A program made the translations under genes and the position numbers. Under the pieces are notes generated by a model. It saw only the letters and a program-made list of their open reading frames with translations, had not been told where the DNA came from and searched no databases. Source: Mesorhizobium sp. 65-26 (GTDB taxonomy: Bacteria > Pseudomonadota > Alphaproteobacteria > Rhizobiales > Rhizobiaceae). From it: a DNA stretch of 64,000 bases. The stretch covers positions 83,150 through 147,149 of the forward strand of contig MKVL01000013.1 of NCBI GenBank assembly GCA_001899205.1, read 5' to 3'. The first letter of the stretch is position 1, and the number at the start of each line of letters is the position of its first letter. This document shows positions 7,491-47,493 of the stretch, piece after piece.

Positions 7491-7501
7491 TGCCGTGATT
7501 G

Positions 7502-7532
7502 GTCCCGACGCCGGCCTGGCCGGTGTCGGGAC
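7502..7532 (+). terminator. Intrinsic terminator of phoR-phoU
   Basis: GTCCCGACGCCGG-CCTGG-CCGGTGTCGGGAC is a 13-bp stem with one G-T wobble, 12 bp after the phoU stop. The run of T after it is weak. Confidence 0.65.
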
Positions 7533-7566
7533 TGTTCGTCATGCGCTTCATTGGCGCCTGGAAACG

Positions 7567-7600
7567 ACAACGCCGGCATCGAGGACGATGCCGGCGTTGT
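7567..7600 (-). terminator. Terminator of gcrA (probably bidirectional)
   Basis: ACAACGCCGGCATCG-AGGA-CGATGCCGGCGTTGT is a perfect 15-bp stem with a 4-base loop, 23 bp beyond the gcrA stop and between convergent phoU and gcrA. Confidence 0.7.
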
Positions 7601-7623
7601 GAATTCGTGACCTTGCCGCCGGC

Positions 7624-8145: not shown

Positions 8146-8498
8146 GAGACCGCGCTCCTGCTGAAATGTGCGGCGGTCGGAATCCATTCACGCCCCGGCT
8201 CCCGCCGGGCAGACACCACATATATCGGGTGATTAGGTCCGCCGCACGAAATCTAGTTATTTCTCGATTACAACTACCTTAAGCGCTGACTCGGTGACAA
8301 GAGTCCGAGGTGCAACACGATTCGGTTTTTTCGGTTTTCCCCAACTTGCCCCGTTGCTTATGAGCTGGCGTTCCGTTGGGGAGCAGTCGCGCGCCTTGCA
8401 CGACCTTTTCGTTGACTTCATGGCCGAAAAACACGATAAGCCGCAAAGGCCGCCGCTTTGGCGGCTTTTTTGATTTTCCGGTTCCGGAGACGCATATA
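8146..8498. other. gcrA-argD divergent intergenic region, possible leader RNA
   Basis: A 353-bp spacer without a supported gene. It holds a long-range inverted repeat, CCCCAAC (8339-8345) with GTTGGGG (8375-8381), and a strong terminator-type hairpin at 8449-8471, only 27 bp before the argD start. A structured argD leader or a small RNA ending at 8471 are both possible. Confidence 0.4.
8449..8471 (+). terminator. Intrinsic terminator or attenuator in the argD leader
   Basis: GCCGCC-GCTTT-GGCGGC followed at once by six T residues is a textbook rho-independent terminator. It lies 27 bp before the argD ATG on the same strand, so it must end an upstream transcript (leader or small RNA) or attenuate argD. 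Confidence 0.65.
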
Positions 8499-24647: not shown

Positions 24648-24695
24648 TGGAGCGGGTAGCGGGAATCGAACCCGCGCGTTCAGCTTGGGAAGCTG
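24648..24695. repeat. attL: 48-bp direct repeat of the tRNA-Gly 3' end
   Basis: 48 bases identical to 47420-47467. They equal the tRNA-Gly(CCC) anticodon stem-loop through CCA on the minus strand, with no 5' half beside them. This is the remnant left when a tRNA-targeting recombinase inserts an element that brings its own 3' end. Identity stops sharply on both sides. Confidence 0.93.
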
Positions 24696-31000: not shown

Positions 31001-31103
31001 GATCAACCTTCTTGACGCGCATGAAACGCCCCAGCAGACCAGAGCGGTCGGCTGAGAGGCGCAGCGTGATCTTGGAAGCGTCGTAGCTGAGTTCAAATGT
31101 CAT
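28014..31103 (-). CDS. zorD: ZorD, SNF2-like helicase/nuclease of type I Zorya
   Basis: A 1029-aa SF2/SNF2 protein. Walker A is DEQGLGKT (517-524) in ADEQGLGKTLQTIAFLTWL, the DExx box is FDEIQNIKNP (about 648-657), then GLTGTPIENS (about 675), and motif VI is NDRVHRLGQTRPI in the last quarter. The first 480 residues are a long helical region as in ZorD. In type I Zorya, ZorD is the DNA-degrading effector recruited when ZorAB senses membrane attack. It is coupled to zorC by a 4-base overlap (ATGA) and is the last gene of the operon. Confidence 0.9.
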   Translation of the reverse strand: MTFELSYDASKITLRLSADRSGLLGRFMRVKKVDLETLSGADRRLVLALADLKSTADGLGETVQISADHITLGHRLAAALDNSTAVEIGLPPLTDLTLRTDAEGVLGTEGFRLQVQWQRSGQQRTPKRTGSILETDRGLQRLPLWMLEAIQVAEGFRKSKDDAEHWEALARFRKALEPGVDMSADSAMARLSMTDFLSGLEISLADGFSISPTHDGDDFEVLPFANERLNPDEVTNEAMAELAGPDLAQFQRRLRERGALNAFRLAPGKFLVVDRSAGAALKVMAEMQRAALEERRAFVRNPRARITEAVEAHLRRQRGFQELSSAAQEEAVEAAAGPLFIETEEYSRFSERVTGIEAYSGNPVAEFASSGTTWLPEAFTDAVLKRLDELRTPELEELRDRLQTAIDGGAATLSFEDIELPANSQTLHVLEGRLQSRSLAEQEPDHGDVGRNGPIILKTEVNFDDVSWRPTRGPRHSNLGDGVPYAIKTRLKDHQVESLGLQIESWKAGMPGILNADEQGLGKTLQTIAFLTWLNEHMKRDGTAGRGPMLIVAPTSLLENWELEVSQHVESPGLGHLIRLYGSATGARKLAGANGRDTLDGDSRLDFSDIRGALNAGAGHLTWILTTYTTLTNYQHSLGNIPFAVAVFDEIQNIKNPGTLAANAARAMNADFRIGLTGTPIENSTVDLWAIMDQLTPGALGSLREFRDRYGAPDEDNMAELHSRVFKTQTGLPPLAFRRLKETVARDLPTKSRFMHPRAMPPLQADRYEEARVKLASGGPGAALKMLHHIRSVSVHPAIDAQEDAQEFIDASGRLAATFDILRRIRSARERALVFIESRQMQFRFMELVRAEFGLARVDLINGDTPIQKRQAIVNRFQEHLTKDGGFDLLVLGPKAAGTGLTLTAATHVIHLSRWWNPAVEEQCNDRVHRLGQTRPITVHVPMAVHPEYREHSFDLLLQSLMQKKRRLASSALWPMGDSADDAAHLQHMLREEGGPISGRTIDDAMAAMMRRDGISLAAPNAEGAWEYK

Positions 31104-32428
31104 CGGGATAGCGCCATCAGAACACGGGATTGCCAGTCGCCCTGGTGAGCAATCGCGTCGAGATTTGGGAGTTCTCGGATTTCTGCCACGTCGTAGCGCT
31201 GTCGATAAAGCTCAGGGGTGCGTAGCTGATCGGCCCTGAAGAAATGGACTCTAAAGCTGAATGTTCCTTCAATGACGATTTTGTTGCGGATACGCATGAT
31301 AAGTAGAGACTTGTCGCGCTCGCCGACCTGCCGGCCGAAACGCCGCCCATGTTGACGAGCATCCGTGGGCAGCTTCGACATCGCCGCACGATGTCCATCA
31401 TCGTTGAAGGCGATCCAGACTTCATCGATGCGCCCCTGCTCATGGAGTGTCCACCAGAACTTCTCCCGGTCGGCCCACATGTGACCGCGTTCGACTTCCG
31501 TTAGAACCCGGAACAAGAACCGGATGTCCGCACCCATTAGCCAGCGCAGGAAGATCTGAACCAAAGCTGGGTCGACCTCATTCCAGGCAGGATGAGGGTT
31601 GACACGAGGATGACTGTAGAGCTGCGTTAATCGATCAACCAGCAGGCTCTGAATTTCTGCGGGAGGGTTGCGTGTCCGCCAGTGACCCAGCAGAACTTCG
31701 ATCGCCTTACCTGCGCCAACCTGTCTGAGCGCACGATCATCCGGTCTAAGCCACCCCAGCAATCGCTCAATTTCATCAAGCGATGTGAGTCGGGGCCCGA
31801 TGATATTGAGGAATTCGAGATGAGCCGCGTCCATTAGACCGGGCGCGTGCGGCTGATGAAGTCCCAACGCCCGAAGGCCATGCCAAGGATCCGGCATCAG
31901 GTCCATTTTGGCGGCAAGCGCCGAGGGCGCATGGTGCGCGTCGAGCAACTCCGGGACGTTCTCCAGAAGAGGCTGCCAACGTGCTCCGATCTTGGAGCGA
32001 GAGTATTGCAGCGCCTCAGCCAACTCCAGCGTGTGGGCCTTACCCGTCTCGTAGCTCTCAATATAGATCCGCAGCATCGGGTTGATAAAACCATGGCGTA
32101 TCGTTGCGCGAATCTCGGCGCACAGGAAGCGGCGAATGTCGGCCAGGTCGTCACGAACCCGGTGTGCTGCCGCGTAGACGAGAGAAGCTACGCGCGTCAC
32201 GAAACTCATTGGCACCTTGTGCCAATCGTGTTCTCTGATCCTGCGCAGCATCTCGGAGAAGAGCCGTTCAGCGTCCCGTTCCGGAGGTTTGTCGGGTGCG
32301 TCGTATCTGTCGAGAACCCGACGGATGTTCCGCTCGATCAACTCGAAAGATGGCAGGGAAGGCGTCTCAAGCGGTCGTAGATCGTCGAGTTGGTGGGCCA
32401 AGGACCGTTGGTGCGCTTCGTGGGTCAC
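31100..32428 (-). CDS. zorC: ZorC, EH-signature protein of type I Zorya
   Basis: A 442-aa protein between zorB and zorD, matching the EH_Signature type. Helical segments include HDWHKVPMSFVTRVASLVYAAA and LGWLRPDDRALRQVGAGKAIE. The C-terminal SFRVHFFRADQLRTPELYRQ is rich in aromatics. In Zorya type I, ZorC binds DNA and, with ZorD, acts downstream of the ZorAB motor. Starts and stops overlap on both sides (ATGA with zorB, ATGA with zorD). Identification rests mostly on position and the conserved EH pattern. Confidence 0.88.
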   Translation of the reverse strand: MTHEAHQRSLAHQLDDLRPLETPSLPSFELIERNIRRVLDRYDAPDKPPERDAERLFSEMLRRIREHDWHKVPMSFVTRVASLVYAAAHRVRDDLADIRRFLCAEIRATIRHGFINPMLRIYIESYETGKAHTLELAEALQYSRSKIGARWQPLLENVPELLDAHHAPSALAAKMDLMPDPWHGLRALGLHQPHAPGLMDAAHLEFLNIIGPRLTSLDEIERLLGWLRPDDRALRQVGAGKAIEVLLGHWRTRNPPAEIQSLLVDRLTQLYSHPRVNPHPAWNEVDPALVQIFLRWLMGADIRFLFRVLTEVERGHMWADREKFWWTLHEQGRIDEVWIAFNDDGHRAAMSKLPTDARQHGRRFGRQVGERDKSLLIMRIRNKIVIEGTFSFRVHFFRADQLRTPELYRQRYDVAEIRELPNLDAIAHQGDWQSRVLMALSR

Positions 32429-33393
32429 GGGCGACTCATCCGAGATCCGATGAGCAGCGCATCCCGCACCTTCTCGATCTCATCGGTGTCTCGGGGAACG
32501 TGCATGATAATGCGCAGGTCTATGCGTCGGTTTGATGCCTTGTGCTCGACCGTGTCGTTAGGCGCGATCGGACGCATCCGGCCATAGCCGGCGACCGACA
32601 GAACCGGCTGTCGCTGGAAATTGAGGTAGCTCAACAGCTGTTGGTGGGTGGTCATCGCACGGAACGTGGTCGTGGCGCGATTGGTGGACAGCACAAGATT
32701 CGCCATATCGTCGCCGTCTGAGTCTGTGTGGCCTTCGATCTGGACAGCCTCGATAAGGGCGAACCCGGAATTGCAATTCGTGTCGAACCTGGCATCAGCG
32801 CCCAGCGTGTAGCAAGGCACTATATCGTGCAGGCGATCTGCTAACACCTGGACGAGGCGCAGCCCGTCGGGGAGAAGTGTATACTCCCCCCGCTTGAAAA
32901 GCCCTTCGCCCTGGAAGCGAAGCGACTCCTCACTTAGCATCAGCTGGAGATCCGGAAAGTCGAGCGCAATTCGGTCACGCAACTGCTGAAGGATGCGACG
33001 CCGAGTCTCCATGCTGTTGTTGATATAGGCTTCAAGAGGATTGGGTTTTCTTAGCCTTTCCAGCTCAGCCTCGAGCTGCGCGATCCGGGCCTTCAGCACG
33101 GCAATTTCCTTCTCCGCTTTCTCGCGGGCTGCGATGGCCGCGTCGCGCTCGGTTTCCAATTGCACAATGCGTTGCTGTAGGCGTTTGAGTTCTTCAGCTA
33201 ACGCGTCTCGTTCGTTCAACACCTGCTCGTATTGGGAACGAGGCACCATCTCTGACCGATTGTATCGACTCGCGAAGAAAGCAAGCAGCAGGATGACGAT
33301 GAAGAGGAAACCAACCGTCATGTCTGTCATCGACACGAAGGCGGACTCTTCTTCTTCCTCATGCCGGCGACGACGCATGGAGCTGGCACGCAT
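32425..33393 (-). CDS. zorB: ZorB, MotB/OmpA-like stator subunit
   Basis: A 322-aa MotB-like protein. One membrane helix, TVGFLFIVILLLAFFAS (about 26-42), follows a Met-Thr-Asp turn (SMTDMT) in which D24 is the ion-translocating Asp of MotB-type stators. A long coiled-coil (about 60-125, LAEELKRLQQRIVQLETERD) leads to an OmpA-type peptidoglycan-binding domain with QIEGHTDSDGDDMANLVLST and MTTHQQLLSYLNFQR. It anchors the ZorAB motor to the wall. Its start overlaps the zorA stop by one base (TAATG). Confidence 0.93.
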   Translation of the reverse strand: MRASSMRRRRHEEEEESAFVSMTDMTVGFLFIVILLLAFFASRYNRSEMVPRSQYEQVLNERDALAEELKRLQQRIVQLETERDAAIAAREKAEKEIAVLKARIAQLEAELERLRKPNPLEAYINNSMETRRRILQQLRDRIALDFPDLQLMLSEESLRFQGEGLFKRGEYTLLPDGLRLVQVLADRLHDIVPCYTLGADARFDTNCNSGFALIEAVQIEGHTDSDGDDMANLVLSTNRATTTFRAMTTHQQLLSYLNFQRQPVLSVAGYGRMRPIAPNDTVEHKASNRRIDLRIIMHVPRDTDEIEKVRDALLIGSRMSRP

Positions 33394-35420
33394 TAGCTAC
33401 GTCCCTGCTGTGGTTGGAACTCCTGCAGTCCGTCAAGGATCGTCTGAAGCGTCGACAGCGCCGTGTTCAGTTGACCCGCCATACTCTGAACATGGCTGCG
33501 AACGGCCTGCATCGCCTGTTCAGTCTGGCTGGAGTAAAGATCGAACGCATGGCCAAGCTTGTCGTCGATCGTATCCATGCGGTCGCCCTGACCACGCAGC
33601 CGTTCAAGCATGGTTGTGACTGCGGCAAGCGAGCTTTCGACGCCCTGGCGTTCTGCAGCAATCGTCTCACGCGCCACTTCCAATGTCCGGGCAGCCGCCT
33701 CCGCGGTCGCGAGCGAGCTTTCCCGGACGGTTGCGACGGCATCCCGCGTGCCGTCCGCAAACTGACGTAGCGAGCCCTCGATGCGCTCCGAGGTCGCGCG
33801 GACAGGCGCGGCTGCGGCCACGAGTTCCTGGGAGGCCCCGCGGAACGTGCCTGCGGCTTCGGCACTGGCCGATGCACCGTCGCGCACAGCATCCGCGAGT
33901 CTGCGCATTTGGTCGGCGCCGCCCGTGAGCGAAGTCACCATGCCGTCGAGTTGGTGCGCAATCGCCTCGATCGGAGCAATCAGATCATCACCCGCCTTCG
34001 AAGAAAGCGCTTGGGTCATTCCAGCTATGTCGGCACCCGCCTTGCTGAAAGCATCCAACATTGTCTGCCCGGCCGCGCCAATCGCTTTGCCCGCATCTTC
34101 GCCCGCAAGTTCCAGCCGAGCTTTTGCCGCATCGGCGCCACTGCGCGCTGCGGTCTCAATTTCGCTACGCATGGCGACAGCAGCGTCGCGCATGTCCACC
34201 GCGGCGGCCGAAATCGCCCGGGCACCTTCGCCGGTGTTGTCGCGAATGCTTTCCAGCGTCCGGTTCATGGCACCGAGAAGTTGCTCCGCGCCTTGGTTGA
34301 ATACGCCGGTTGCGGATTGTGCAGAGGCAGACATTGCTCCGCGCAGCTCATCCACCGCCTGGGCGACACGAGCAACGGCTTGCTCCATTTCGCTCCCCAT
34401 GCGGCCGGAGGACTGGTCCATGCGGTCGGCCAGCTGGCTTATCTTGTCGCCAGCGTGCGCCAAGTGCTCGCTTGCCTGCCCAAGCGCACCGGCGACCCCT
34501 TGTGTCACCTGCTGCGACAGATCCGTCGCCATAGTCGCAATGCTATCGGTGCCCTGTTGGCTCACCTTGTCCATAATGGGCTGCATGGCCGTCGTGATGG
34601 AGGACGAAATTGCCTGCGGCAGTTCAGTTTTGAGAGGCCCACCGATCTCAGCGATCATTTGCAGGGTAAGTTGTCGCTGGTGCTCGCGACTTTCTATCGT
34701 CGCACGCAGTTGGTCGACCGCAATCTGCTCCAGGCTGGCGAAATTTATCCGGCCTTCGACCGTCCTGCAAAGCCGATGCAACTGTTCATCAAGGCTGCCG
34801 ACGAAAATCCGGAGCACGATCGTCAACACGATCGAACAGACCAAACCCGTCAGGGACATGATGAACTTGGCCGATGCGATCCGCAGGAGATTGGCCATAG
34901 CCGCATCGTCGATATGCTTTCCAGACAACGCATTCAGCGCTGCGATAAGGCCAAGAAAGGTGAGCGCCAGACCGATCGAGACGAACAGGCCTGGCCAGAT
35001 TCGATAGAAGCCCTGGCCAAAGTGCAGATCGTCGATGTTGAAGAACGCTGATGGACGCACGGAATTGCGAAGCAGCGGCTCGTCACCTGAGTTGTCGATG
35101 AACAGCGTCTCGTCGAACTCGCTCCAAGCTTCGCGAAGAGCCTCCTGCTCTTTGCCGCCTTTCTGGCTGTTAAACCACGCACTGATCTTTTCGCGGCCTT
35201 GCAGCAGCGGTGAGTCGCCACTCCCAAGTTCGCGGCGCAACCGTTTGATTGAGCTGATCCGCATCTGGAAGGTATGCCACGCAAACGCCAGGATGAGGGC
35301 AAGTGCAACCAGCAGCAGGATCACAACGATGCCCGGCGCCGCGTCACCTGTCAGGAATGACGCAGCGGAAAGAACCAGGTCCTTTACCAAGGTCCCCAGA
35401 TCAAGAACTGAACCAAACAT
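33393..35420 (-). CDS. zorA: ZorA, MotA-like membrane motor with long tail
   Basis: A 675-aa MotA/TolQ/ExbB-type membrane protein. Hydrophobic segments are at about 30-50 (PGIVVILLLVALALILAFAW), 145-165 and 178-205. A periplasmic/cytoplasmic core with RIWPGLFVSIGLALTFLGLI is followed by about 450 residues of Ala-rich heptad-like sequence (the ZorA tail). The tail carries the signal from the ZorAB membrane motor inward in published type I Zorya. Here it repeats patterns such as AGDKISQLADRMDQSSGRMG. It is the first gene of the operon, whose promoter lies in the 243-bp spacer shared with hsdM. Confidence 0.93.
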   Translation of the reverse strand: MFGSVLDLGTLVKDLVLSAASFLTGDAAPGIVVILLLVALALILAFAWHTFQMRISSIKRLRRELGSGDSPLLQGREKISAWFNSQKGGKEQEALREAWSEFDETLFIDNSGDEPLLRNSVRPSAFFNIDDLHFGQGFYRIWPGLFVSIGLALTFLGLIAALNALSGKHIDDAAMANLLRIASAKFIMSLTGLVCSIVLTIVLRIFVGSLDEQLHRLCRTVEGRINFASLEQIAVDQLRATIESREHQRQLTLQMIAEIGGPLKTELPQAISSSITTAMQPIMDKVSQQGTDSIATMATDLSQQVTQGVAGALGQASEHLAHAGDKISQLADRMDQSSGRMGSEMEQAVARVAQAVDELRGAMSASAQSATGVFNQGAEQLLGAMNRTLESIRDNTGEGARAISAAAVDMRDAAVAMRSEIETAARSGADAAKARLELAGEDAGKAIGAAGQTMLDAFSKAGADIAGMTQALSSKAGDDLIAPIEAIAHQLDGMVTSLTGGADQMRRLADAVRDGASASAEAAGTFRGASQELVAAAAPVRATSERIEGSLRQFADGTRDAVATVRESSLATAEAAARTLEVARETIAAERQGVESSLAAVTTMLERLRGQGDRMDTIDDKLGHAFDLYSSQTEQAMQAVRSHVQSMAGQLNTALSTLQTILDGLQEFQPQQGRS

Positions 35421-35663: not shown

Positions 35664-37238
35664 ATGATCACTGGTGAATTGCGTTCGAAAATCGATGCCG
35701 TCTGGAACGCCTTCTGGGCGGGTGGCATCGCCAATCCGCTCGAGGTGATCGAGCAGATCACCTATCTGCTGTTCATGCGCGGGCTGGACGAAGCCGAGCA
35801 GCTCGAGGAGAACCGCTCGATGCGCACCGGCCAGCCTATGCGTCGTCGCATCTTCAAGGGTGGCAAGGACGGCATCGGCGAGGGCGGCGGCGTCGCCTAT
35901 GCGGACCTGCGGTGGTCGCGGCTGAAGAACAGGGATGCCGGCACCATGTTCAAGATCGTGTCGGAGCACGTCTTCCCCTTCCTGCGCAACATGGCGGAGG
36001 ACGGCACTGCGCACGCCACGCATATGAAGGGCGCGCGCTTCACCATTCCCTCGCCGGCGCTGCTGGTGAAGGTGGTCGACCTCATCGACAAGCTGCCGAT
36101 GCAGGACCGCGACACGAAGGGCGATCTCTACGAATACATGCTGGGCAAGATCGCCACCGCCGGCCAGAACGGTCAGTTCCGGACACCGCGCCACATCATC
36201 GCGCTGATGGTGGAGATGACGGCGCCGACGCCGAAGGACATCATTTGCGATCCTGCCTGCGGCACCTGCGGCTTCCTGGTCGCGGCGGGCGAATATCTGC
36301 GCGACAACCATCCGAGGATGTTCCACGACCAGGAGAGCCGCGACCATTTCAACGAGGAGATGTTCCACGGCTTCGACTTCGACAACACCATGCTGCGCAT
36401 CGGTTCGATGAATATGACGTTACACGGCGTCGAGGATCCCGATATCCGCTACAAGGATTCGCTCAGCCAGGAACATGCCGGCGACGAGGACCGCTATTCG
36501 CTCGTGCTCGCCAATCCACCCTTCGCGGGCTCGCTTGACGCCGATCAGGTCGCCAAGGATCTGCAGGCAATCGTCAAGACCAAGAAGACCGAGCTTCTGT
36601 TCATGGCGCTGTTCCTGAAGCTCTTGAAGCCCGGTGGGCGGGCGGCAGTGATCGTGCCGGACGGCGTGCTGTTCGGCTCCTCCACCGCGCACAAGGAAAT
36701 CCGCCGCATGCTGGTCGAGGACCATCGGCTCGACGGCATCGTCAAGCTGCCGTCGGGCGTCTTCCGGCCCTATGCCGGCGTCTCGACGGCGATCGTGCTA
36801 TTCACCAAGACTAATTCCGGCGACACGGATCACGTCTGGTTCTACGACTGCCAGGCCGACGGCTTTTCGCTGGACGACAAGCGCAATGCCCTGCTGCCGG
36901 CCGAGAAGATCGGGCCGACGCCGGGTTACCGCGAGGCAGGCCATTTCGTAAACCTGACCTTGACCGACGAGGAACTGGCGAAAAACAACCTGCCCGACAT
37001 CGCCGCGCGCTGGGCTGAGCGCAACAGTGCCGAACGCGACCGGCCCCGAACGGCGCAAAGCTTCCGCGTGCCGAAAGCCGAGATCGCGGCAACCGGCTAC
37101 GACCTTTCCATCAACCGCTACAAGGAGATGGTGCACGAGGCGCAGGATCACCGCCCGCCGAAAGAGATCATCGCTGAACTGAAGGCACTGGAGAAGGAGA
37201 TCGCCGACGGACTACAAGAGCTGGAGGCGATGCTGTGA
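35664..37238 (+). CDS. hsdM: Type I restriction-modification DNA methyltransferase HsdM
   Basis: A 524-aa N6-adenine methyltransferase. AdoMet motif I is DPACGTCGFLVAA (196-208) and catalytic motif IV is NPPF (284-287). The N-terminal helical domain contains VWNAFWAGGIANPLEVIEQI and a C-terminal SINRYKEMVHEAQDHR. It modifies host DNA and is needed, with HsdS, for cleavage by HsdR. ATG 35664 is used; an earlier frame start at 35535 would intrude into the promoter spacer. It overlaps hsdS by 4 bases. Confidence 0.95.
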   Translation: MITGELRSKIDAVWNAFWAGGIANPLEVIEQITYLLFMRGLDEAEQLEENRSMRTGQPMRRRIFKGGKDGIGEGGGVAYADLRWSRLKNRDAGTMFKIVSEHVFPFLRNMAEDGTAHATHMKGARFTIPSPALLVKVVDLIDKLPMQDRDTKGDLYEYMLGKIATAGQNGQFRTPRHIIALMVEMTAPTPKDIICDPACGTCGFLVAAGEYLRDNHPRMFHDQESRDHFNEEMFHGFDFDNTMLRIGSMNMTLHGVEDPDIRYKDSLSQEHAGDEDRYSLVLANPPFAGSLDADQVAKDLQAIVKTKKTELLFMALFLKLLKPGGRAAVIVPDGVLFGSSTAHKEIRRMLVEDHRLDGIVKLPSGVFRPYAGVSTAIVLFTKTNSGDTDHVWFYDCQADGFSLDDKRNALLPAEKIGPTPGYREAGHFVNLTLTDEELAKNNLPDIAARWAERNSAERDRPRTAQSFRVPKAEIAATGYDLSINRYKEMVHEAQDHRPPKEIIAELKALEKEIADGLQELEAML

Positions 37239-38419
37239 CATTGCATATTGCTCGCCTTGACGAGGTCTGCGAAATCAACCCCCGCATGCCGAGGTCGATC
37301 TCCGACATCGATATTGCTTCTTTCCTTCCGATGGCGGCAGTGTCTGAGGATGGACTGATCAGCTTTGAGGAGGAGCGGTCCGTTCGGGAAGTCAAGAAGG
37401 GCTATACCTATTTCGAGCGTGGCGATATTTTGGTGGCCAAGATCACACCCTGCTTCGAGAATGGGAAGGCGACGCGAACGAGTGCGCTAACGAAGCCCTT
37501 TGGATTCGGTTCGACCGAGTTTCATGTCTTGCGTGCTGGTAAGGAACTCGATCCGTCGTATCTTTTCCAACTAGTTTGGAACTCGAAGTTCCGCGAAGTT
37601 GGCGCCAGCAATATGACAGGCAGCGCCGGCCAGAAACGCGTTCCGGCTGACTTCCTGAAGCGCCTCGAAATCCCCCTCCCACCTCTCCGCGAACAGCAGC
37701 GAATTGCTGCGATCCTGGACAAGGCTGATGCGCTACGCCGCAAGCGCAAACGCGCCATCGAGTTGCTCGACAGCCTCACGCAGTCGATCTTTCTGGAGAT
37801 GTTTATTTCGGGAGAGCAAAAATCTTGGCCAATCGCTACGGTCGAGTCACTGTCCGTAAGCATGCGAACCGGCCCGTTCGGTAGCCAACTCCTTCATTCG
37901 GAGTTCGTTGAGAAGGGTATACCCGTGCTTGGGATCGACAACGCCGTAAGCAACGAATTCCGTTGGGTTGAACGGCGTTATATCACGCCCCGAAAATACG
38001 AGGAACTGCGTCGCTATACCGTGTTGCCTCGCGATGTCCTCATTACGATCATGGGAACGTGTGGCCGTTGCGCGGTAGTGCCTGATGACATTCCCATAGC
38101 GATAAATACGAAGCACCTCTGCTGTATCACATTGGATGCCGGTAAATGCCTGCCTGAATTTCTCCAGGCCGCGTTCCTGCAACATCCTTCTATACTCCGG
38201 CAGTTGGGCGTTGAGGCTAAAGGTGCGGTGATGCCGGGGCTAAACATGGGCATCATCAAGGGACTTTCTTTGCCCCTTCCCCCGATCGAGATTCAGGTTG
38301 AATTCGCTCGTTCGGTGCGTCGCCTCGGTATTCAGCGGTCCTCGGGAATTGAGGCTCATTCTTCAGCGGATAGCCTCTTCTCGTCCCTTCAATTTCGCGC
38401 TTTCTCAGGCCAGCTTTGA
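37235..38419 (+). CDS. hsdS: Type I restriction specificity subunit HsdS
   Basis: A 394-aa specificity protein with two target-recognition domains. The first begins LHIARLDEVCEINPRMP and the second SVSMRTGPFGSQLLHSEF, separated by the conserved helical linkers IPLPPLREQQRIAAILDKAD and LPLPPIEIQVEFARSVRRLG. The protein sets the bipartite DNA target for both modification and cleavage. It overlaps hsdM (ATGA), and the next gene starts 2 bp after its stop. Confidence 0.94.
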   Translation: MTLHIARLDEVCEINPRMPRSISDIDIASFLPMAAVSEDGLISFEEERSVREVKKGYTYFERGDILVAKITPCFENGKATRTSALTKPFGFGSTEFHVLRAGKELDPSYLFQLVWNSKFREVGASNMTGSAGQKRVPADFLKRLEIPLPPLREQQRIAAILDKADALRRKRKRAIELLDSLTQSIFLEMFISGEQKSWPIATVESLSVSMRTGPFGSQLLHSEFVEKGIPVLGIDNAVSNEFRWVERRYITPRKYEELRRYTVLPRDVLITIMGTCGRCAVVPDDIPIAINTKHLCCITLDAGKCLPEFLQAAFLQHPSILRQLGVEAKGAVMPGLNMGIIKGLSLPLPPIEIQVEFARSVRRLGIQRSSGIEAHSSADSLFSSLQFRAFSGQL

Positions 38420-38421
38420 TT

Positions 38422-39255
38422 ATGGCCGACGCGCCAGCCGGCAGTGACTGGTTGGATCGCGAGATCGACCTGATCGTCGCCGACTACTTCGACATGCTGT
38501 CGCTGGAACTGGCGGGCCGTGCGTTCGTGAAGGCGCAGCGCAATGCGGCGCTTCAGGAACTCACTGGCCGCAGCCGCGGCTCGATCGAATTCAAGCATCA
38601 GAATATCAGCGCGGTGCTCTATCGGCTCGGCATGCCATGGATCGCCGGTTACAAGCCGATGGCCAATTACCAGCGGGCGCTGGTCGACGGCGTCGAGCGC
38701 CATATCGCCCGCGATCAGGCGCTTTTCGAGAACCCGATGCCTGCGGCGTCCGCACCCGGCCTGCACGAGCCCCAACAAATCTTCTTCGAAGCGCCGCCTA
38801 TCACGAATTTCGAAGCTGTGCCGCCGGCGCTGGAGCGGATCGTGCGGAAATTCGACCCTGCTCTACGGGATGCCCGCAATCGACAACTGGGCAAGAACGG
38901 AGAGGAGTGCGTCTTCGTCGCCGAGCAGTCAACCTTGCGCGCTGCGGGGCGTGAAGATCTTGCCCGCAAGGTGCGCTGGGTTTCAGCGGAGGACGGCGAC
39001 GGCGCCGGCTACGACATTCGTTCGTTCGATCCGGCCGGCAGGGAACGCCTCATCGAGGTGAAGACTACCATTGGTCACAAGCAGACCCCGTTTCTGCTCT
39101 CGGAGAATGAACGGGCCTTCTCGGAGGAGCGCCCGGATGCGTTCAGGCTGATGCGGTTGTTCGACTTCGCCAGCCAGCCGCGCGCCTTCGAACTCACGCC
39201 ACCGCTGGACAAATCCTTGCTGCTGAAAGCTGCGACCTGGCGGGCGCAGTTCTGA
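38422..39255 (+). CDS. DUF3883 nuclease-like protein within the hsd operon
   Basis: A 277-aa protein. The C-terminal half has the DUF3883/PD-(D/E)xK pattern GAGYDIRSFDPAGRERLIEV followed by KTT: the Asp of YDI and the ExK of EVKT form the usual catalytic triad. The N-terminal half (DWLDREIDLIVADYFDMLSL, then FKHQNISAVLYRLGMPWIAG) is a helical domain seen with DUF3883 in restriction-like loci. The start is ATG 38422, 2 bp past hsdS. Its place between hsdS and hsdR suggests an added nuclease or regulator of this RM system. Confidence 0.82.
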   Translation: MADAPAGSDWLDREIDLIVADYFDMLSLELAGRAFVKAQRNAALQELTGRSRGSIEFKHQNISAVLYRLGMPWIAGYKPMANYQRALVDGVERHIARDQALFENPMPAASAPGLHEPQQIFFEAPPITNFEAVPPALERIVRKFDPALRDARNRQLGKNGEECVFVAEQSTLRAAGREDLARKVRWVSAEDGDGAGYDIRSFDPAGRERLIEVKTTIGHKQTPFLLSENERAFSEERPDAFRLMRLFDFASQPRAFELTPPLDKSLLLKAATWRAQF

Positions 39256-39269
39256 GGAGACACACACGA

Positions 39270-39803
39270 ATGGCCGACATCGGCACTTTCCGCCTTACGC
39301 TACCAGGCCAAATGCTGCGGCGCGGCTTTTGGCTCTATGTTTGGAAGGTCGCAGCCGCCGACGGTCGCGAACTTCTCTATGTCGGGCGGACAGGTGACAA
39401 CTCCAGTCCCAACGCCTCGCCACCATATATTCGGATGGGGCAGCACCTCGGCTCAATGAAGAACCAGAACGCACTACGTCGCCATCTCACGAGCCGTGGA
39501 ATCGAACCCGAGACGTGTGGGTCCTTTGAGCTAATCGCCCATGGCCCCATCCACCCAGAAGTCGTTAAGCCCGAAGATTTCGATCATGCTGATAAGCTCA
39601 CGCGAGATTCTCTTATGAAATTACACACGCCTTTCCGAAATAGTGTGGGCGCGATGGAAAAGCAGCTGGAAAAAGATCTTCGTTCTGCCGGCTACGTCGT
39701 CATGAATGAGGTGAAATGGAAGCACAGTGTCAATGACGCGGAGTGGATTCCGATCCGACTGGCATTTGCAACTGATTTCCCAAAGCTCAAGGACTTGAAG
39801 TGA
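39270..39803 (+). CDS. GIY-YIG-like nuclease superfamily protein within the hsd operon
   Basis: A 177-aa protein whose N-terminus contains FWLYVWKVAAADGRELLYVG followed by RTGDNSS, resembling the GIY-(x)10-YIG core. Downstream residues (YIRMGQHL, ALRRHLTSRG, then MEKQLEKDLRSAGY) could supply the Arg and Glu of that fold. No larger domain is recognised. It starts 14 bp after the DUF3883 gene, and its stop overlaps the hsdR start (GTGA), so it is tightly coupled. It may be an accessory nuclease of the RM system or a regulator; the exact catalytic set needs structural modelling. Confidence 0.62.
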   Translation: MADIGTFRLTLPGQMLRRGFWLYVWKVAAADGRELLYVGRTGDNSSPNASPPYIRMGQHLGSMKNQNALRRHLTSRGIEPETCGSFELIAHGPIHPEVVKPEDFDHADKLTRDSLMKLHTPFRNSVGAMEKQLEKDLRSAGYVVMNEVKWKHSVNDAEWIPIRLAFATDFPKLKDLK

Positions 39804-42800
39804 CGTCCAACTTCACCTTCCTCGCCGCAGAGTTTCCAACCGTCCACGAGGCGGCGGTGGAGGCAGAACGGCAGGCGGGTGTGTCGCCGACGGCGGCGGC
39901 GTTCTTTGCCGGCAAGACAGTCGAGCTCGCGGTCAAATGGGCATTCCGCAACGATCCTGGCCTGAAGCTGCCCTACCAGGACAATATCGCCGCACTGCTG
40001 CATGAACCGAGCTTTCGCCGCGCGGCGGGCGATGCGGTGTTCGCCAAGGCGAAATTCATCAACACGCTGCGCAATCGCGCCGTGCACGAGGAAAAGACCA
40101 TCCGGCCAGGCGACGCCGTCGGCGCGGTCAAGGAACTGTTCCACGTCTGCTTCTGGCTGGCGCGCACCTACGCGCGCAAGGCAAAGCCGGCGGACGGCAT
40201 GGCTTTCGACGCCTCGGTGCTGGCGCGCCGCGACGAGACGCTGAAGAAGGCCTTCGCGCATCTGAAGGCGCAGCAAGCCGAGCTCGACGCCAAGAACGGC
40301 GAACTGACCAAACTGCTTTCCGACAACCAGAACCTCGACGCCGAACTGCAGCGCCTGCGCGCCGAAGTGTCGGCGGCCCGTCATGCGGCAGAGGCGACGC
40401 CTTCCACGCATGACTACAATGAGGCCGAAACTCGCGACCGCTTCATCGACCTTCTGCTGCGCGAGGCGGGCTGGGCGCTGGACAGGCCGGAAGACACTGA
40501 GTTCCGCGTCGAGGGCATGCCGAACGAGCAGGGCATCGGCTTCGTCGACTATGTGTTGTGGGGCGCGGATGGCAAGCCGCTGGGCCTGGTCGAGGCCAAG
40601 CGCACGCGCAAGGATGCCCGCCAGGGCCAGCAGCAGGCAAAACTCTATGCCGATCGGCTGGAGGCCCGCTACGGCCAACGGCCGGTGATCTTCTATTCGA
40701 ATGGCTATGAGCACTGGATCTGGGACGATGTGCGCTATCCGCCGCGCCAGATCGGCGGCTTCTACAAGCGCGACGAGTTGGAACTCCTGATCCAGCGCCG
40801 CACAAGCCGCAGGAAGCTCGCCGAGACAAGGCTCAACACGAAGATTGCCGGCGACAAGCGCCCCTACCAGCAGCGCGCCATCCGTGCCATCGGCAAGGCC
40901 TTCGAGGACGAGGGCGAGCGCAAGGCACTGCTCGTGATGGCCACGGGCTCCGGCAAGACGCGCACCGTCATAGCGTTGGTCGATCTTTTGATGCGCGCTG
41001 GCTGGGTGAAGCGCGTGCTGTTCCTTGCGGATCGCGTGGCCCTGGTGAACCAGGCGGCTGGTGCCTTCAAGGCGCATCTGCCGGATTCGGCGCCAGTCAA
41101 TCTCGTCACAGAGCGGTCCATCGAGGGCCGCGTGTTCCTGTCCACCTATCCGACGATGATGAACCTCATCGATGGCAGGCAGGAGGGCAAGGCCAAGTTC
41201 GGCCCTGGGCATTTCGACCTCATCGTCATCGATGAGGCGCACCGGTCGGTCTACCAGCGCTATCGCGCGATCTTCGAGTATTTTGACTCGTTCCTCGTCG
41301 GCCTGACCGCGACGCCCAAGGACGAGATCGACAAGAATACCTATTCGCTCGTCGACCTGGAAGACGGCGTGCCCACCGACGCCTACAGCCTCGAAGAAGC
41401 TGTTGCCGACGGCCATCTCGTGCCGCCCGTGGCGATCTCTGTGCCGCTGAAGATCGTGCGCTCCGGCTTGCGCTATGACGATCTCTCCGAGGAGGAGAAG
41501 GACCAGTGGGACATGCTGGAGTGGGGCGAGGACGAGATCCCCGATACGGTCGAGGCGGCCGAGGTGAACAAGCGCCTGTTCAACCAGGACACCGTTGACC
41601 GGGTCATTGCGCACTTGATGCAGAACGGGTTGAAGGTCGAAGGCGGCGACCGGCTCGGCAAGACCATCATCTTCGCCAAGAACCAGGCACACGCTGTTTA
41701 CATCGAGGCTCGCTTCAACGCGGCCTATCCGTCGCTTGCTGGACACTTCGCGCGCGTCATCACCTACGAGAGCGGTGCCTACGCACAGACGCTGATCGAC
41801 GACTTCTCCAAGAAGGGCAAGGCCCCGCACATCGCCATCTCGGTCGATATGCTGGACACCGGCATCGACGTGCCGGAGGTGGTGAATCTTGTTTTCTTCA
41901 AACAGGTGCGGTCGAAGACCAAGTTCTGGCAGATGATGGGCCGCGGCACGCGTCTCTGCCCCGACCTGTTTGGCCCTGGCCAGGACAAGGAATTCTTTCG
42001 CGTCTTCGACTATTGCCAGAATCTCGAGTTCTTCGGCGCAAATCCGGAGATCAAGGAAGCCAGCGTTGCCAAATCCCTATCGGCCCGCCTGTTCGCCGCC
42101 CGGCTCGATCTTGTGCGTGCGGTAGATGACAAGGGTGGCAAGGCGGGCGGCTTTGCCGCGCCCGAACAGCAACCTTACGAAGCGCCCGGCAGCCACGTAG
42201 ACCCGCCGAGTATGGAAGAGGTGCGTGCGAGCGCGCTGGCCGTTCTGCGCGAGACCGTCGCTGGCCTGAACCTCGAGAACTTCATCGTGCGCCAGAAGCG
42301 CCGGATGGTCGAAAAATACCAGGCCGACCAGGCTTGGAATGACATCGACGATGAGGCGCGGGATGAGCTGGTGAGCGACATTGCGCCGCTTCCATCGTCG
42401 CGTGAACTGGGAACCGAGGAAGCGAAGCGCTTCGACCTGCTGATGTTCCAGCTGCAGCTTGCCCTTCTCAAAGGCTCCAAGCGCTTCGATACGCTGAAGA
42501 AGCAACTCCTCGAATTCGCATCCGCGCTCGAGGACCAGACAGCCATTCCAGGCATCGCAGCGCAGGCGGTGCTCATCGAAGAGATCCAGACCTCGCAATG
42601 GTGGGAAGGCGTGAGCGTTCCTCTGCTGGAGCTGGTCCGGCTGCGCCTGCGCAATCTGATTCAGCACATCGAGAAAGGCCGTCGGTCGATCGTCTACTCG
42701 AACTTCGCCGACGAGATCGGCGCCGGCGAGGAGATCGACCTGCCGCAGGTCGGCGAGGCCGATTTCGCCCGCTTCAAGGCGAAGGCACGGCACTTCCTCC

Positions 42801-43231
42801 GTGGACTCTCCGGCAATCAGGTTCTCGACAAGTTGCGCCAGGGCAGGGCACTAACCGCATACGATCTGGCGGAGCTGGAACGGCTGCTGCTGGAGGCAGG
42901 GATTGCCGGTCCGCAGGATATCGAGCGCGCCCGGGAGGCCAGCCGCGGCTTCGGTCGCTTCGTGCGCTCGCTGGTCGGGCTCGACCGTTCAGCGGTAAGT
43001 GACGCCTTCGGTGAATTCCTATCGCATGGCGCCGCCGCGCATCAGCAGATCGAGTTCATCGGCCTGGTCATCGAGCACATGACCGAAGCCGGCTCGATGG
43101 ATCCCGCACTGCTCTATGAGGCGCCGTTTACCGACATCGCTCCGACGGGACCGGAACAGGTATTCGACGAAGGCCAGGTGGCTGCCCTTGTCGCGCGCAT
43201 CCGAGAGATCAGCGAGAGCGCTGCGGTTTAG
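39800..43231 (+). CDS. hsdR: Type I restriction endonuclease HsdR
   Basis: A 1143-aa motor-nuclease. The N-terminal DUF4145-like helical region (AAFFAGKTVELAVKWAF) precedes the nuclease site D250...E265-x-K267 in FVDYVLWGADGKPLGLVEAK. The helicase motor has Walker A MATGSGKT (380-387) and DEAH (478-481), with QMMGRGTRLCPDL as motif VI. The C-terminal region couples to HsdMS. The start is GTG 39800, overlapping the GIY-YIG-like stop. It translocates DNA and cuts unmodified targets. It is the last gene of the five-gene operon. Confidence 0.96.
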   Translation: MTSNFTFLAAEFPTVHEAAVEAERQAGVSPTAAAFFAGKTVELAVKWAFRNDPGLKLPYQDNIAALLHEPSFRRAAGDAVFAKAKFINTLRNRAVHEEKTIRPGDAVGAVKELFHVCFWLARTYARKAKPADGMAFDASVLARRDETLKKAFAHLKAQQAELDAKNGELTKLLSDNQNLDAELQRLRAEVSAARHAAEATPSTHDYNEAETRDRFIDLLLREAGWALDRPEDTEFRVEGMPNEQGIGFVDYVLWGADGKPLGLVEAKRTRKDARQGQQQAKLYADRLEARYGQRPVIFYSNGYEHWIWDDVRYPPRQIGGFYKRDELELLIQRRTSRRKLAETRLNTKIAGDKRPYQQRAIRAIGKAFEDEGERKALLVMATGSGKTRTVIALVDLLMRAGWVKRVLFLADRVALVNQAAGAFKAHLPDSAPVNLVTERSIEGRVFLSTYPTMMNLIDGRQEGKAKFGPGHFDLIVIDEAHRSVYQRYRAIFEYFDSFLVGLTATPKDEIDKNTYSLVDLEDGVPTDAYSLEEAVADGHLVPPVAISVPLKIVRSGLRYDDLSEEEKDQWDMLEWGEDEIPDTVEAAEVNKRLFNQDTVDRVIAHLMQNGLKVEGGDRLGKTIIFAKNQAHAVYIEARFNAAYPSLAGHFARVITYESGAYAQTLIDDFSKKGKAPHIAISVDMLDTGIDVPEVVNLVFFKQVRSKTKFWQMMGRGTRLCPDLFGPGQDKEFFRVFDYCQNLEFFGANPEIKEASVAKSLSARLFAARLDLVRAVDDKGGKAGGFAAPEQQPYEAPGSHVDPPSMEEVRASALAVLRETVAGLNLENFIVRQKRRMVEKYQADQAWNDIDDEARDELVSDIAPLPSSRELGTEEAKRFDLLMFQLQLALLKGSKRFDTLKKQLLEFASALEDQTAIPGIAAQAVLIEEIQTSQWWEGVSVPLLELVRLRLRNLIQHIEKGRRSIVYSNFADEIGAGEEIDLPQVGEADFARFKAKARHFLRGLSGNQVLDKLRQGRALTAYDLAELERLLLEAGIAGPQDIERAREASRGFGRFVRSLVGLDRSAVSDAFGEFLSHGAAAHQQIEFIGLVIEHMTEAGSMDPALLYEAPFTDIAPTGPEQVFDEGQVAALVARIREISESAAV

Positions 43232-45399: not shown

Positions 45400-45687
45400 A
45401 TGCAGATCGTCGCCTCCCTCATCCACGCCCTTCCTGCCACTGAACGCAGGTGTTTCGACCGCAAGGAAGCAGCGTCATATCTGGGCGTGAGCCCCGCGCA
45501 TCTCGACAAGCTTGTGAGGAATGGCTTGGCGCCCCAGCCAATTGGGTTCCTGGGCCGCAAAGTCTGGGACAAGGCGGTGCTCGACCGTCTGCTTGATACC
45601 CACTCCGAGGTTGCCGGCTCTTACGGCGTTTCCGACGTTCTCGACCGTGAGCTCGCTGAGTTCGAGGCGAAGCATGGTCGCGCTTGA
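45400..45687 (+). CDS. AlpA/excisionase-like HTH protein
   Basis: A 95-aa protein with a MerR/AlpA-type helix-turn-helix: FDRKEAASYLGVSPAHLDKL then VRNGLAPQPIGFLGRKVWDK and AVLDRLLDT. Small HTH proteins of this kind in front of integrase genes usually act as recombination directionality factors. Its coding end overlaps the integrase start by 14 bp. A GTG at 45367 is an alternative start; neither has a strong ribosome binding site. Confidence 0.75.
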   Translation: MQIVASLIHALPATERRCFDRKEAASYLGVSPAHLDKLVRNGLAPQPIGFLGRKVWDKAVLDRLLDTHSEVAGSYGVSDVLDRELAEFEAKHGRA

Positions 45688-46690
45688 ACTGAAAGGTCTC
45701 CACCGGGTCAGATCCAAGGGGAGGGTCTGGTATGCCTGGCGCGGCGGTCCGAGAATCGCCGGCGAGCCCGGAACGCCCGAGTTCATCGCTTCATACAACG
45801 ATGCGATCGCCAGCGTCACGACACCCGACAACAGCCGCTTTCGATCCCTGGTGGCACTCTACAAGGCCAGCCCCGACTATCAGAAGCTTGCCCACTCGAC
45901 GCGGCGCAATTGGGGACCTTGGCTCGACCGCATCGCTGACCATTTCGGCGAGTTGCGGATCGCGCAGTTCGATCGGCCTAAAAGGATCAGGCCGATCATC
46001 CGGCAGTGGCGAGCCAAATATGCCGAGAAGCCGCGGACGGCGGACTATGGTGTGCAGGTATTGTCCCGCGTGCTCTCCTACGCCGTAGATCCGCTGGGCA
46101 AGATCGCCTCCAACCCATGCGAGGGGATCAAGCAACTCTATAGCGGCTCTCGCTCGGAAATAATCTGGACGGACAACGATATTGCGCACCTCAAGGTCAC
46201 TTGTTCGGTGGAGATTGCCCATGCCGTCGACCTGGCGGCGCATACTGGTCTGCGCGTTGGTGATCTCGTGCGGCTGTCGTGGTCGCATGTCGGCGAGGAC
46301 GCCATCATCGTCACGACCGGCAAGAGCAGGCATAAACGCGAGGCTGTGATTCCGCTTTATCAGGAGTTGCGCGACGTTCTCGCGCGAATTCCGAGGCGCT
46401 CGCCGGTCGTCCTGACCGGCAGCAGGAAGCGTCCGTGGACTGTCAACGGTCTGGCCAGTTCGTTCTCCGACGCGAAAAAGATAGCCTGGCCGAAAGGTGA
46501 CAATCTACATTTTCACGATCTGCGTGGCACTGCGGCGACGAAGTTCTATGTCGCCGGCATGACCGAGCGTGAGATCGCTGAGATCATGGCCTGGGAAGAA
46601 GACCAGGTCGCCCGCATCATCCGCCGCTACGTCAGCCGCGGCGCCGCGATCAAGGAACGGATCCGGAAGTTGAATGGGGCCGCCAAGTAG
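45674..46690 (+). CDS. int: Tyrosine recombinase (site-specific integrase)
   Basis: A 338-aa phage-type integrase. The catalytic residues are visible: Arg in HTGLRVGDLVRLSW, the HxxR in FHDLRGTAATKF, and the nucleophile Tyr near the end in IIRRYVSRGAAI. The N-terminal half holds an arm-binding and core-binding region (STRRNWGPWLDRIADHFGEL). It sits about 0.7 kb inside the right attachment site, as expected for an enzyme that integrates at tRNA-Gly. The start is ATG 45674, within the end of the AlpA-like gene. Confidence 0.93.
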   Translation: MVALELKGLHRVRSKGRVWYAWRGGPRIAGEPGTPEFIASYNDAIASVTTPDNSRFRSLVALYKASPDYQKLAHSTRRNWGPWLDRIADHFGELRIAQFDRPKRIRPIIRQWRAKYAEKPRTADYGVQVLSRVLSYAVDPLGKIASNPCEGIKQLYSGSRSEIIWTDNDIAHLKVTCSVEIAHAVDLAAHTGLRVGDLVRLSWSHVGEDAIIVTTGKSRHKREAVIPLYQELRDVLARIPRRSPVVLTGSRKRPWTVNGLASSFSDAKKIAWPKGDNLHFHDLRGTAATKFYVAGMTEREIAEIMAWEEDQVARIIRRYVSRGAAIKERIRKLNGAAK

Positions 46691-47419: not shown

Positions 47420-47467
47420 TGGAGCGGGTAGCGGGAATCGAACCCGCGCGTTCAGCTTGGGAAGCTG
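47420..47467. repeat. attR: 48-bp direct repeat inside the intact tRNA-Gly
   Basis: The 48-bp copy identical to 24648-24695. It covers the anticodon stem-loop to the CCA end of the tRNA on the minus strand. Identity ends at its inner border in the 5' strand of the anticodon stem, which fits crossover in or near the anticodon loop, the usual place for tRNA-targeting integrases. Confidence 0.93.
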
Positions 47468-47493
47468 ACAGGCTACCATTACATCATACCCGC
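47420..47493 (-). tRNA. tRNA-Gly (CCC anticodon)
   Basis: A 74-nt tRNA on the minus strand: GCGGGTA acceptor, D-arm TGTAATGGTA, anticodon stem TCAGC with loop TTCCCAA (anticodon CCC at 47459-47461), TpsiC arm GCGGG-TTCGATT-CCCGC, acceptor TACCCGC, then TCCA including encoded CCA. It is intact because the element brought an identical 3' end, and serves as the attachment gene of the island. Confidence 0.95.

What the first reader, a model, noticed from the sequence alone, without database searches (positions are those of the whole stretch)
35664..43231. Type I RM operon with two nuclease-like genes inserted between hsdS and hsdR
Seen: hsdM-hsdS-DUF3883-GIY-YIG-like-hsdR, with ATGA or GTGA overlaps or gaps of 2-14 bp at every junction. 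The DUF3883 protein carries D and ExK residues; the next has a GIY/YIG-like core. Known type I systems need only HsdR, M and S. Inference: the added genes may restrict a different DNA form or control HsdR, making a composite defence system that may be undescribed.
Basis: partly seen in the sequence, partly recalled or inferred. Interest (0 to 1): 0.78.

Follow-up and report, generated by a model that had tools for sequence, protein, structure and literature searches.

The report
Extra nuclease genes inside restriction operon
A common bacterial DNA-restriction operon carries two extra nuclease-like genes in a slot that often holds add-on defence genes; one is an already listed, mostly free-living candidate defence gene, the other belongs to a small family without a database model that usually travels with restriction systems.

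Summary
In detail: hsdM-hsdS-DUF3883-GIY-hsdR form one packed operon at 35664-43231. The hsdS-hsdR gap is a cargo slot: of 397 genomes of the order, 18 carry this HsdR lineage; 11 of 18 hold cargo there, from at least five families, 7 hold none. Such embedding is known (RloF, TgvAB, DarTG2, PrrC). The two cargo genes differ in kind. DUF3883 matches PADLOC candidate PDC-S36 and mostly lives without hsd; hsd-resident copies form one clade. The 177-aa GIY protein belongs to a rare family without Pfam, PADLOC or NCBIfam model; of 27 loci found, 21 lie in type I operons and 2 beside MmeI-type or ZacABC genes. Its GIY-YIG-type residues are invariant in 24 of 24 aligned members, close pairs show purifying selection, and it diverges with HsdM/HsdR, not with HsdS among M-S-R loci. 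Fold searches gave weak or no support. Best reading: a site-independent accessory endonuclease serving the restriction complex, plus a separate PD-(D/E)XK passenger. Function is inferred.

The parts
35664..37238 (+). hsdM, type I methyltransferase subunit
   Evidence: Pfam N6_Mtase/HsdM_N; PADLOC MTase_I E 7e-191
37235..38419 (+). hsdS, specificity subunit
   Evidence: Pfam Methylase_S; PADLOC Specificity_I E 1.8e-99
38416..39255 (+). DUF3883/NOV_C protein (PDC-S36), PD-(D/E)XK nuclease-like cargo gene; ATG at 38422 gives a 2-bp gap after hsdS
   Evidence: PF13020; PADLOC PDC-S36 E 2e-113 over nearly full length; D200/E214/K216 invariant in 19 of 19
39270..39803 (+). GIY gene: 177-aa minimal GIY-YIG-like nuclease of a family without a database model
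   Evidence: No Pfam or PADLOC family and only two chance NCBIfam hits at E <= 0.1; invariant Y23, Y37, G39, R55, H59, E130 in 24 of 24; model pLDDT 91.6 with b-b-a-a-b-a order
39800..43231 (+). hsdR, type I restriction subunit with its own D-ExK nuclease (D250, E265, K267) and Walker motif
   Evidence: Pfam ResIII, HSDR_N, EcoEI_R_C; motifs
28014..35420 (-). neighbouring type I Zorya operon with all four genes (ZorA 33393-35420, ZorB 32425-33393, ZorC 31100-32428, ZorD 28014-31103), divergent from hsdM
   Evidence: PADLOC ZorA1/B1/C1/D1, E 1.8e-290, 9.6e-112, 3.3e-174 and 0; NCBIfam Zorya models match A, B and D below their cut-offs, none matches C
45521..46690 (+). tyrosine-recombinase-like integrase of the island (domain name recalled, not scanned)
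   Evidence: ORF; lies beside tRNA-Gly 47420-47493
24648..24695 (.). 48-bp copy of the tRNA-Gly 3' end (47420-47467): probable left end of the island
   Evidence: exact repeat

Best explanation
This is an ordinary type I restriction-modification operon whose hsdS-hsdR gap serves as a cargo slot for extra nucleases. The GIY protein is most likely an accessory endonuclease that serves the restriction complex: a minimal GIY-YIG-like domain without a recognisable DNA-reading domain, co-inherited with HsdM and HsdR, indifferent to the target sequence chosen by HsdS, and cutting foreign DNA that the complex has engaged (or its products). The DUF3883 protein is a separate PD-(D/E)XK nuclease, a portable candidate defence gene (PDC-S36) that probably entered this hsd lineage once and then stayed; it most likely restricts on its own, perhaps DNA that type I enzymes miss. 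Shown: operon, family relations, conserved residues, selection in close pairs, linkage and co-divergence. Inferred: nuclease activity, partner contact, substrate, order of events.
For: GIY: 21 of 27 loci are in type I operons (16 between hsdS and hsdR, 4 after hsdS in hsdR-M-S order, 1 after hsdR), 2 others beside MmeI or ZacABC; the GIY-hsdR junction is coupled in several (window -4, L014 -4, L018 -4, L012 -1, L019 -1 bp). GIY identities track HsdM (r 0.70, 0 of 5000 permutations, 16 loci) and HsdR (r 0.76, 0 of 5000, 16 loci), but not HsdS within the 11 M-S-R loci (r -0.11, 4009 of 5000). Pairs L023/L025 and L024/L026 share 94 and 97% GIY, 95 and 99% HsdM but only 31 and 29% HsdS. dN/dS of GIY 0.06-0.17 in 4 close pairs. 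The 18 GIY-linked HsdR sequences examined show their own ExK and Walker motifs, so GIY does not replace the HsdR nuclease. DUF3883: found in 35 of 397 genomes of the order; of 31 of these whose loci were looked at, 4 have it in an hsd slot; 20 of 20 re-fetched other loci show no Hsd relative in their 6-12 kb; the 4 intact hsd copies form one clade, support 100/99.
Against: No experiment and no complex prediction was possible. Foldseek against PDB gave no GIY-YIG hit among the 50 rows shown for the GIY model (best E 0.2), and against viral models only weak hits (best E 0.018); profile support is weak in absolute terms. A partner swap (MmeI in L003, ZacABC in L028) and two viral contigs without hsd (L034, L035) argue against a subunit dedicated to HsdMSR. 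Co-divergence with M and R is also expected from mere operon co-inheritance, and HsdM too shows no correlation with HsdS within the M-S-R loci (r -0.10), so the HsdS result may only show that hsdS is exchanged often; over all 15 loci GIY and HsdS do correlate (r 0.28, 63 of 5000). In L030 GIY differs far more from the window's (53 and 43% in two pieces) than HsdM and HsdR do (92 and 90.5%) and is broken, so it is dispensable; in L025 it is hsdR that lies in two frames beside an open GIY.
Confidence: 0.42

Rival explanations
1. Both genes are independent restriction systems for another DNA form, in particular modified phage DNA, parked in the hsd operon for shared expression, as TgvAB and BrxU complement their host systems.
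For: The same slot holds a GmrSD type IV enzyme in 2 of 18 genomes (GmrSD_N and GmrSD_C); other cargo beside GIY carries MUG113 with a sub-threshold EVE match (L024) or T5orf172 (L020); TgvAB protects against T-even phages without HsdR activity (PMC11411939, passages; the same passages say that tgvAB alone protected 10- to 100-fold less than the whole cluster against several phages). DUF3883 mostly lives without hsd.
Against: The GIY protein has no recognisable reader domain, and no solo locus with intact surroundings in a cellular genome was found; without a restriction or defence neighbour it appears only in two viral contigs and in L029 near a contig end.
Confidence: 0.28
2. Guard model as for PrrC: the Hsd complex holds the GIY (or DUF3883) nuclease silent and releases it when a phage anti-restriction protein blocks HsdR.
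For: PrrC is embedded in a type IC hsd locus and is released when T4 Stp blocks the enzyme (PMC12707154, PMC3710099, passages); GIY is often coupled to hsdR and co-diverges with HsdM/R.
Against: No sensor or ATPase domain found; DUF3883 lives mostly without hsd; GIY also occurs beside MmeI and ZacABC, where no HsdR relative was found.
Confidence: 0.15
3. Hitch-hiking only: the slot is an insertion hotspot and the genes have no working link with hsd.
For: Slot cargo is diverse (at least five families) and 7 of 18 operons have none; DUF3883 is away from hsd in most genomes looked at; L030 GIY, and DUF3883 in G573 and G492, are broken.
Against: For GIY: 21 of 27 in type I operons, coupled junctions, purifying selection. 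For DUF3883 this remains plausible, although the hsd copies form one retained clade.
Confidence: 0.1
4. The extra proteins regulate or restrain HsdR.
For: Position next to hsdR only.
Against: 7 of 18 operons of the same lineage lack cargo; broken copies coexist with an open hsdR frame (L030 GIY; G573 and G492 DUF3883); nuclease residues are conserved.
Confidence: 0.05

Closest known systems
R-linked ORFs (rlo) and PrrC in type I loci
   Same: Accessory genes inside hsd operons; RloF of Campylobacter lies between hsdS and hsdR (passages of PMC4619093, PMC11411939), PrrC is embedded in the EcoPrrI locus (passages of PMC12707154, PMC3710099; its exact place is recalled)
   Different: Different families: RloF is DUF262/GmrS, PrrC an ABC-HEPN tRNA nuclease; neither is GIY-YIG or DUF3883
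[quoted passage not shown]
   Same: Two restriction genes embedded in a five-gene T1RM operon
   Different: DUF262/DUF1524 type IV enzyme with a predicted nucleotide-binding sensor; no GIY-YIG or PD-(D/E)XK. L088/L092 carry a GmrSD in the same slot of the lineage studied here
PADLOC PDC-S36 (DUF3883 candidate defence gene)
   Same: Window protein matches the model over residues 8-279 of 279, E 2e-113
   Different: Listed among candidates; here an hsd-resident clade. What its authors wrote could not be read (preprint not held; no held paper names PDC-S36)
GIY-YIG nucleases (UvrC N-domain, small GIY-YIG proteins, phage homing endonucleases, SNIPE)
   Same: GIY...YIG hairpin, R, H, E; b-b-a-a-b-a order
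   Different: Family-specific loop GDNSSPxAxxPY of about 8 extra residues between YIG and the catalytic R (canonical spacing recalled); no extra domain found; below Pfam level of proof
DarTG2 in a type I locus (RRDM island, PMC12255303, passages)
   Same: Defence module between hsdS and hsdR, a site its authors propose as potential recombination hotspot
   Different: Toxin-antitoxin pair, not nucleases

Membership tests
Type I restriction-modification system | HsdM, HsdS and HsdR with methylase, TRD and DEAD/nuclease domains in one operon | tested here: met
Type I restriction-modification system | active methylation and restriction | not testable with these tools
   needs methylome and phage or plasmid tests
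GIY-YIG nuclease superfamily | catalytic Tyr/Tyr/Arg/His/Glu in GIY-YIG order (set recalled) | tested here: met
   Y23, Y37, G39, R55, H59, E130 invariant in 24 of 24; N146 replaced in L031, L034, L035
GIY-YIG nuclease superfamily | profile match to known GIY-YIG families | tested here: inconclusive
   PF01541 in 6 of 24 members, best E only 0.024, and none for the window protein; hhalign against 25 GIY-YIG sequences together 31.8%, E 5e-4, over 21 columns, against small and UvrC groups apart 8.5 and 12.2%; DUF3883 controls 0.08, 0.09, 0.14 and 1.9%; the two true GIY-YIG groups against each other 3.7%
GIY-YIG nuclease superfamily | fold match to solved or predicted GIY-YIG structures | tested here: inconclusive
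   element order b-b-a-a-b-a fits; PDB search: none among the 50 rows shown; viral models: 18 of the 50 rows shown named homing/GIY-YIG/intron/Orf172 proteins, none at E <= 0.001, low TM-scores
PDC-S36 / DUF3883 | full-length profile match | tested here: met
   E 2.1e-113; PF13020
PD-(D/E)XK nuclease | D...(D/E)xK | tested here: met
   D200, E214, K216 invariant in 19 of 19
PD-(D/E)XK nuclease | fold match | tested here: inconclusive
   model pLDDT 74.9; PDB rows include many nucleases that I recall as having that fold, but all E > 0.1
Type IV modification-dependent enzyme | cuts modified DNA only | not testable with these tools
   no reader domain found in either window protein by Pfam
PrrC-type guard | ABC ATPase plus HEPN nuclease | tested here: not met
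   no such domain in either protein

The most novel reading that the evidence does not exclude
The GIY protein founds a family of portable, target-site-independent co-nucleases: a fourth component that joins the type I restriction complex (and, in relatives, MmeI-type and ZacABC systems) and cuts the DNA these machines have engaged, so that restriction no longer depends on HsdR cleavage alone.
Probability: 0.25. Interest if true: 0.72.

Novelty: new variant of a known kind. Interest (0 to 1): 0.5.

Why it matters
Type I enzymes are taught as three-subunit machines. A nuclease family that is co-inherited with HsdM/HsdR but not tied to HsdS suggests that some are four-part, or carry a built-in second line of attack. 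The comparison also separates two kinds of embedded gene: mostly free-living passengers (DUF3883) and restriction-bound partners (GIY), which helps to decide which embedded genes are worth testing together with their host operon.

Tried and rejected
Sequence searches of the GIY protein against PDB and PHROGs gave nothing useful. Order and class surveys by single-protein search found GIY only in the own genome (1 of 397; 1 of 385), so rarity there is at that sensitivity. The DUF3883 searches against PDB gave only chance hits. I considered that GIY replaces a decayed HsdR nuclease and rejected it (18 sequences; L020 with a cut hsdR, L025 with hsdR in two frames and L015 of another lineage were not in that set). 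I set aside a UDG-like role from weak Pfam hits in 2 of 24 members as noise. Mantel results for HsdS contained a wrongly framed hsdS of L012 (17 stops); I repeated them without L012. The Mantel tests used 15-16 loci; L003, L004 and L030 are absent from the GIY alignment. Of 30 PF01541 loci fetched, one with a stop inside was left out and 4 more gave no sequence by my motif filter, leaving 25. The greedy ORF choice sometimes picked the wrong strand; codon scoring and frame listing still missed some genes, so the search for Hsd relatives around DUF3883 was repeated on all open frames. Of 35 genomes with DUF3883, four (G746, G708, G509, G437) were not looked at.
Full report
What is there. The operon hsdM-hsdS-DUF3883-GIY-hsdR at 35664-43231 is real. 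HsdM, HsdS and HsdR match type I families strongly. The third gene matches NOV_C/DUF3883 (E 7.6e-21) and, over residues 8-279, the PADLOC candidate PDC-S36 (E 2.1e-113). The fourth, 177 aa, has no family in Pfam or PADLOC at E <= 0.1 and two chance NCBIfam hits (E 0.068 and 0.096). A type I Zorya operon with all four genes by PADLOC is transcribed away from hsdM (NCBIfam's Zorya cut-offs are not reached). Both lie on what looks like an island of about 22.8 kb between tRNA-Gly with an adjacent integrase-like gene and a 48-bp copy of the tRNA end.

The fourth gene is GIY-YIG-like. In 24 aligned homologues Y23, Y37, V38, G39, R55, H59 and E130 are invariant. The AlphaFold2 model is confident (pLDDT 91.6, pTM 0.88) with the strand-strand-helix-helix-strand-helix order that I recall for the GIY-YIG core. 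Profile comparison with 25 GIY-YIG sequences gives 31.8% over only 21 columns, low in absolute terms, against 0.08 and 0.09% for DUF3883 controls; two true GIY-YIG groups compared with each other reach only 3.7%. Against this, Foldseek showed no GIY-YIG structure among its 50 PDB rows and only weak matches among viral models, although 18 of the 50 rows shown bear homing, GIY-YIG, intron-endonuclease or Orf172 names; Pfam GIY-YIG appears in 6 of 24 members with best E 0.024 and not in the window protein. I therefore call it GIY-YIG-like with fair but not final support.

Where its relatives live. I found 27 loci: the window, 2 plasmids, 20 genome contigs (48 stretches matched the pattern, 20 were confirmed) and 4 viral contigs; none in 50,697 phage records. 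21 of 27 lie in type I operons: 16 between hsdS and hsdR (in L017 and L022 hsdM lies beyond the contig end or the stretch held), 4 after hsdS in R-M-S order (L024, L026, L032, L033), 1 after hsdR of another type I lineage (L015, its hsdS judged by position). In 13 of the 21 GIY follows hsdS directly, in 7 one gene stands between, in 1 it follows hsdR. Of the other 6, L003 sits beside an MmeI-type enzyme; L028 touches the start of a ZacABC system; in L031, near a contig end, the next gene weakly matches a type II restriction model (E 2.8e-10); L029, near a contig end, shows no hsd gene; L034 and L035 are viral contigs without hsd. The family is rare: 1 of 385 genomes in the class and 1 of 397 in the order, both times only the own genome.

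It is a maintained gene that follows M and R. dN/dS is 0.065, 0.070, 0.062 and 0.169 in four close pairs; for the window and L012 synonymous change is saturated. Identity matrices correlate with HsdM (r 0.70) and HsdR (r 0.76; 0 of 5000 permutations each, 16 loci). With HsdS r is 0.28 over 15 loci (63 of 5000) and -0.11 within the 11 M-S-R loci (4009 of 5000); HsdM against HsdS gives -0.10 within 12 M-S-R loci, so hsdS is exchanged freely against the whole operon. Pairs with nearly the same GIY and HsdM have unrelated HsdS. An autonomous site-specific nuclease protected by the operon's own methylation would need to change with HsdS; this one does not. The 18 GIY-linked HsdR sequences looked at keep ExK and Walker motifs. 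This supports a target-independent helper. Plain operon co-inheritance would also give the correlation, and the divergence and loss of GIY in L030 shows that it is dispensable; in L025 hsdR itself is split over two frames.

DUF3883 is another kind of cargo. It occurs in 35 of 397 genomes of the order and in 1206 of 72,556 plasmid records. In 20 of 20 re-fetched loci away from the slot no Hsd relative was found in any open frame of the 6-12 kb held. Of 31 genomes looked at, 4 have it in the hsd slot, two of these with broken frames. In a 30-row tree the four intact hsd copies (window, L012, L030, G615) form one clade (100/99). So it is a portable gene that probably entered this hsd lineage once. 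D200, E214 and K216 are invariant in 19 of 19; the model is moderate (pLDDT 74.9) and its PDB hits are weak, though they include many nucleases that I recall as PD-(D/E)XK. A survey paper already calls DUF3883 a novel REase domain (PMC3710099, table passage).

The slot. Of 18 genomes with this HsdR lineage, the slot holds DUF3883 in 4 (with GIY only in the own genome), a 310-aa PDC-S32-like protein in 3, GmrSD in 2, PDC-S18 in 1, an unknown protein in 1, nothing in 6, and one locus has R-M-S order without cargo. The GmrSD and PDC-S18 proteins share a DUF5655 domain, so the families are not all unrelated. The PDC-S32 link is weak by profile (hits for L014, L021 and L086 but not L085, L087) while the five proteins match each other at 33-55%. 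GIY-bearing loci add AbiE genes (L027), DUF5655/PDC-S18 (L024, L026) and GIY-YIG-clan proteins, one with a sub-threshold EVE match (L020, L024).

What is known. Accessory genes in type I operons are documented: RloF and DarTG2 between hsdS and hsdR, TgvAB in a similar place, PrrC within the locus (passages read in PMC4619093, PMC11411939, PMC12255303, PMC12707154, PMC3710099). The preprint by Payne and colleagues on embedded defence genes was seen only as a reference and in one paper's description. Full-text searches for GIY-YIG with hsd or anti-phage terms and the passages opened from them (not all listed papers were opened) showed no description of this family; one Lactococcus plasmid paper lists a 277-aa GIY-YIG protein beside hsdS, whose relation to this family I did not test (PMC4420470). 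The library lacks preprints and most subscription papers, so absence from print is not shown.

Verdict. The slot and the DUF3883 gene are known in kind; the GIY family as a recurrent partner of type I operons appears to be a new variant. Its mechanism remains inference.

Noticed in passing
window 28014-35420 (-): Type I Zorya operon (ZorABCD by PADLOC) divergent from the hsd operon on the same tRNA-Gly island.
   Followed up: partly
window 24648-24695 and 47420-47467: 48-bp exact direct repeat of the tRNA-Gly 3' end, marking probable ends of a 22.8-kb defence island with an integrase-like gene at 45521-46690.
   Followed up: partly
window 24903-26150 (-): HipA-like protein just inside the left island end (name recalled, not scanned).
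   Followed up: no
L088 4241-6340, L092 3986-6085: GmrSD type IV enzyme with a C-terminal DUF5655 domain embedded between hsdS and hsdR; DUF5655 is also the C-terminal domain of PDC-S18 cargo in the same slot.
   Followed up: partly
L028 9956-16779: GIY gene overlaps by one base the start of a ZacABC defence operon in a WOR-3 bacterium MAG.
   Followed up: partly
L030 9953-10515: In Mesorhizobium sp. AR07 both hsdS and GIY differ strongly from the window's while HsdM and HsdR are 90% or more identical; the GIY frame is broken.
   Followed up: partly
L025 10513-13912: hsdR lies in two overlapping frames beside an open GIY gene (Phaeobacter sp. J2-8).
   Followed up: no
L020 10521-11393; L024 10494-11486: A second, different GIY-YIG-clan protein (T5orf172, or MUG113 with a weak EVE match) is the next gene after GIY.
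   Followed up: no
L005 9710-10846: A DUF3883 relative (43% identity) is present on many enterobacterial plasmids; in this record it lies between an aminoglycoside-resistance gene region and an IS1182-like element.
   Followed up: no
L006, L011 about 7300-8855: DUF3883 directly follows a HEPN-domain gene on two plasmids of Sphingomonadales; in L007, L009 and L010 it follows a RelE/HTH pair.
   Followed up: no
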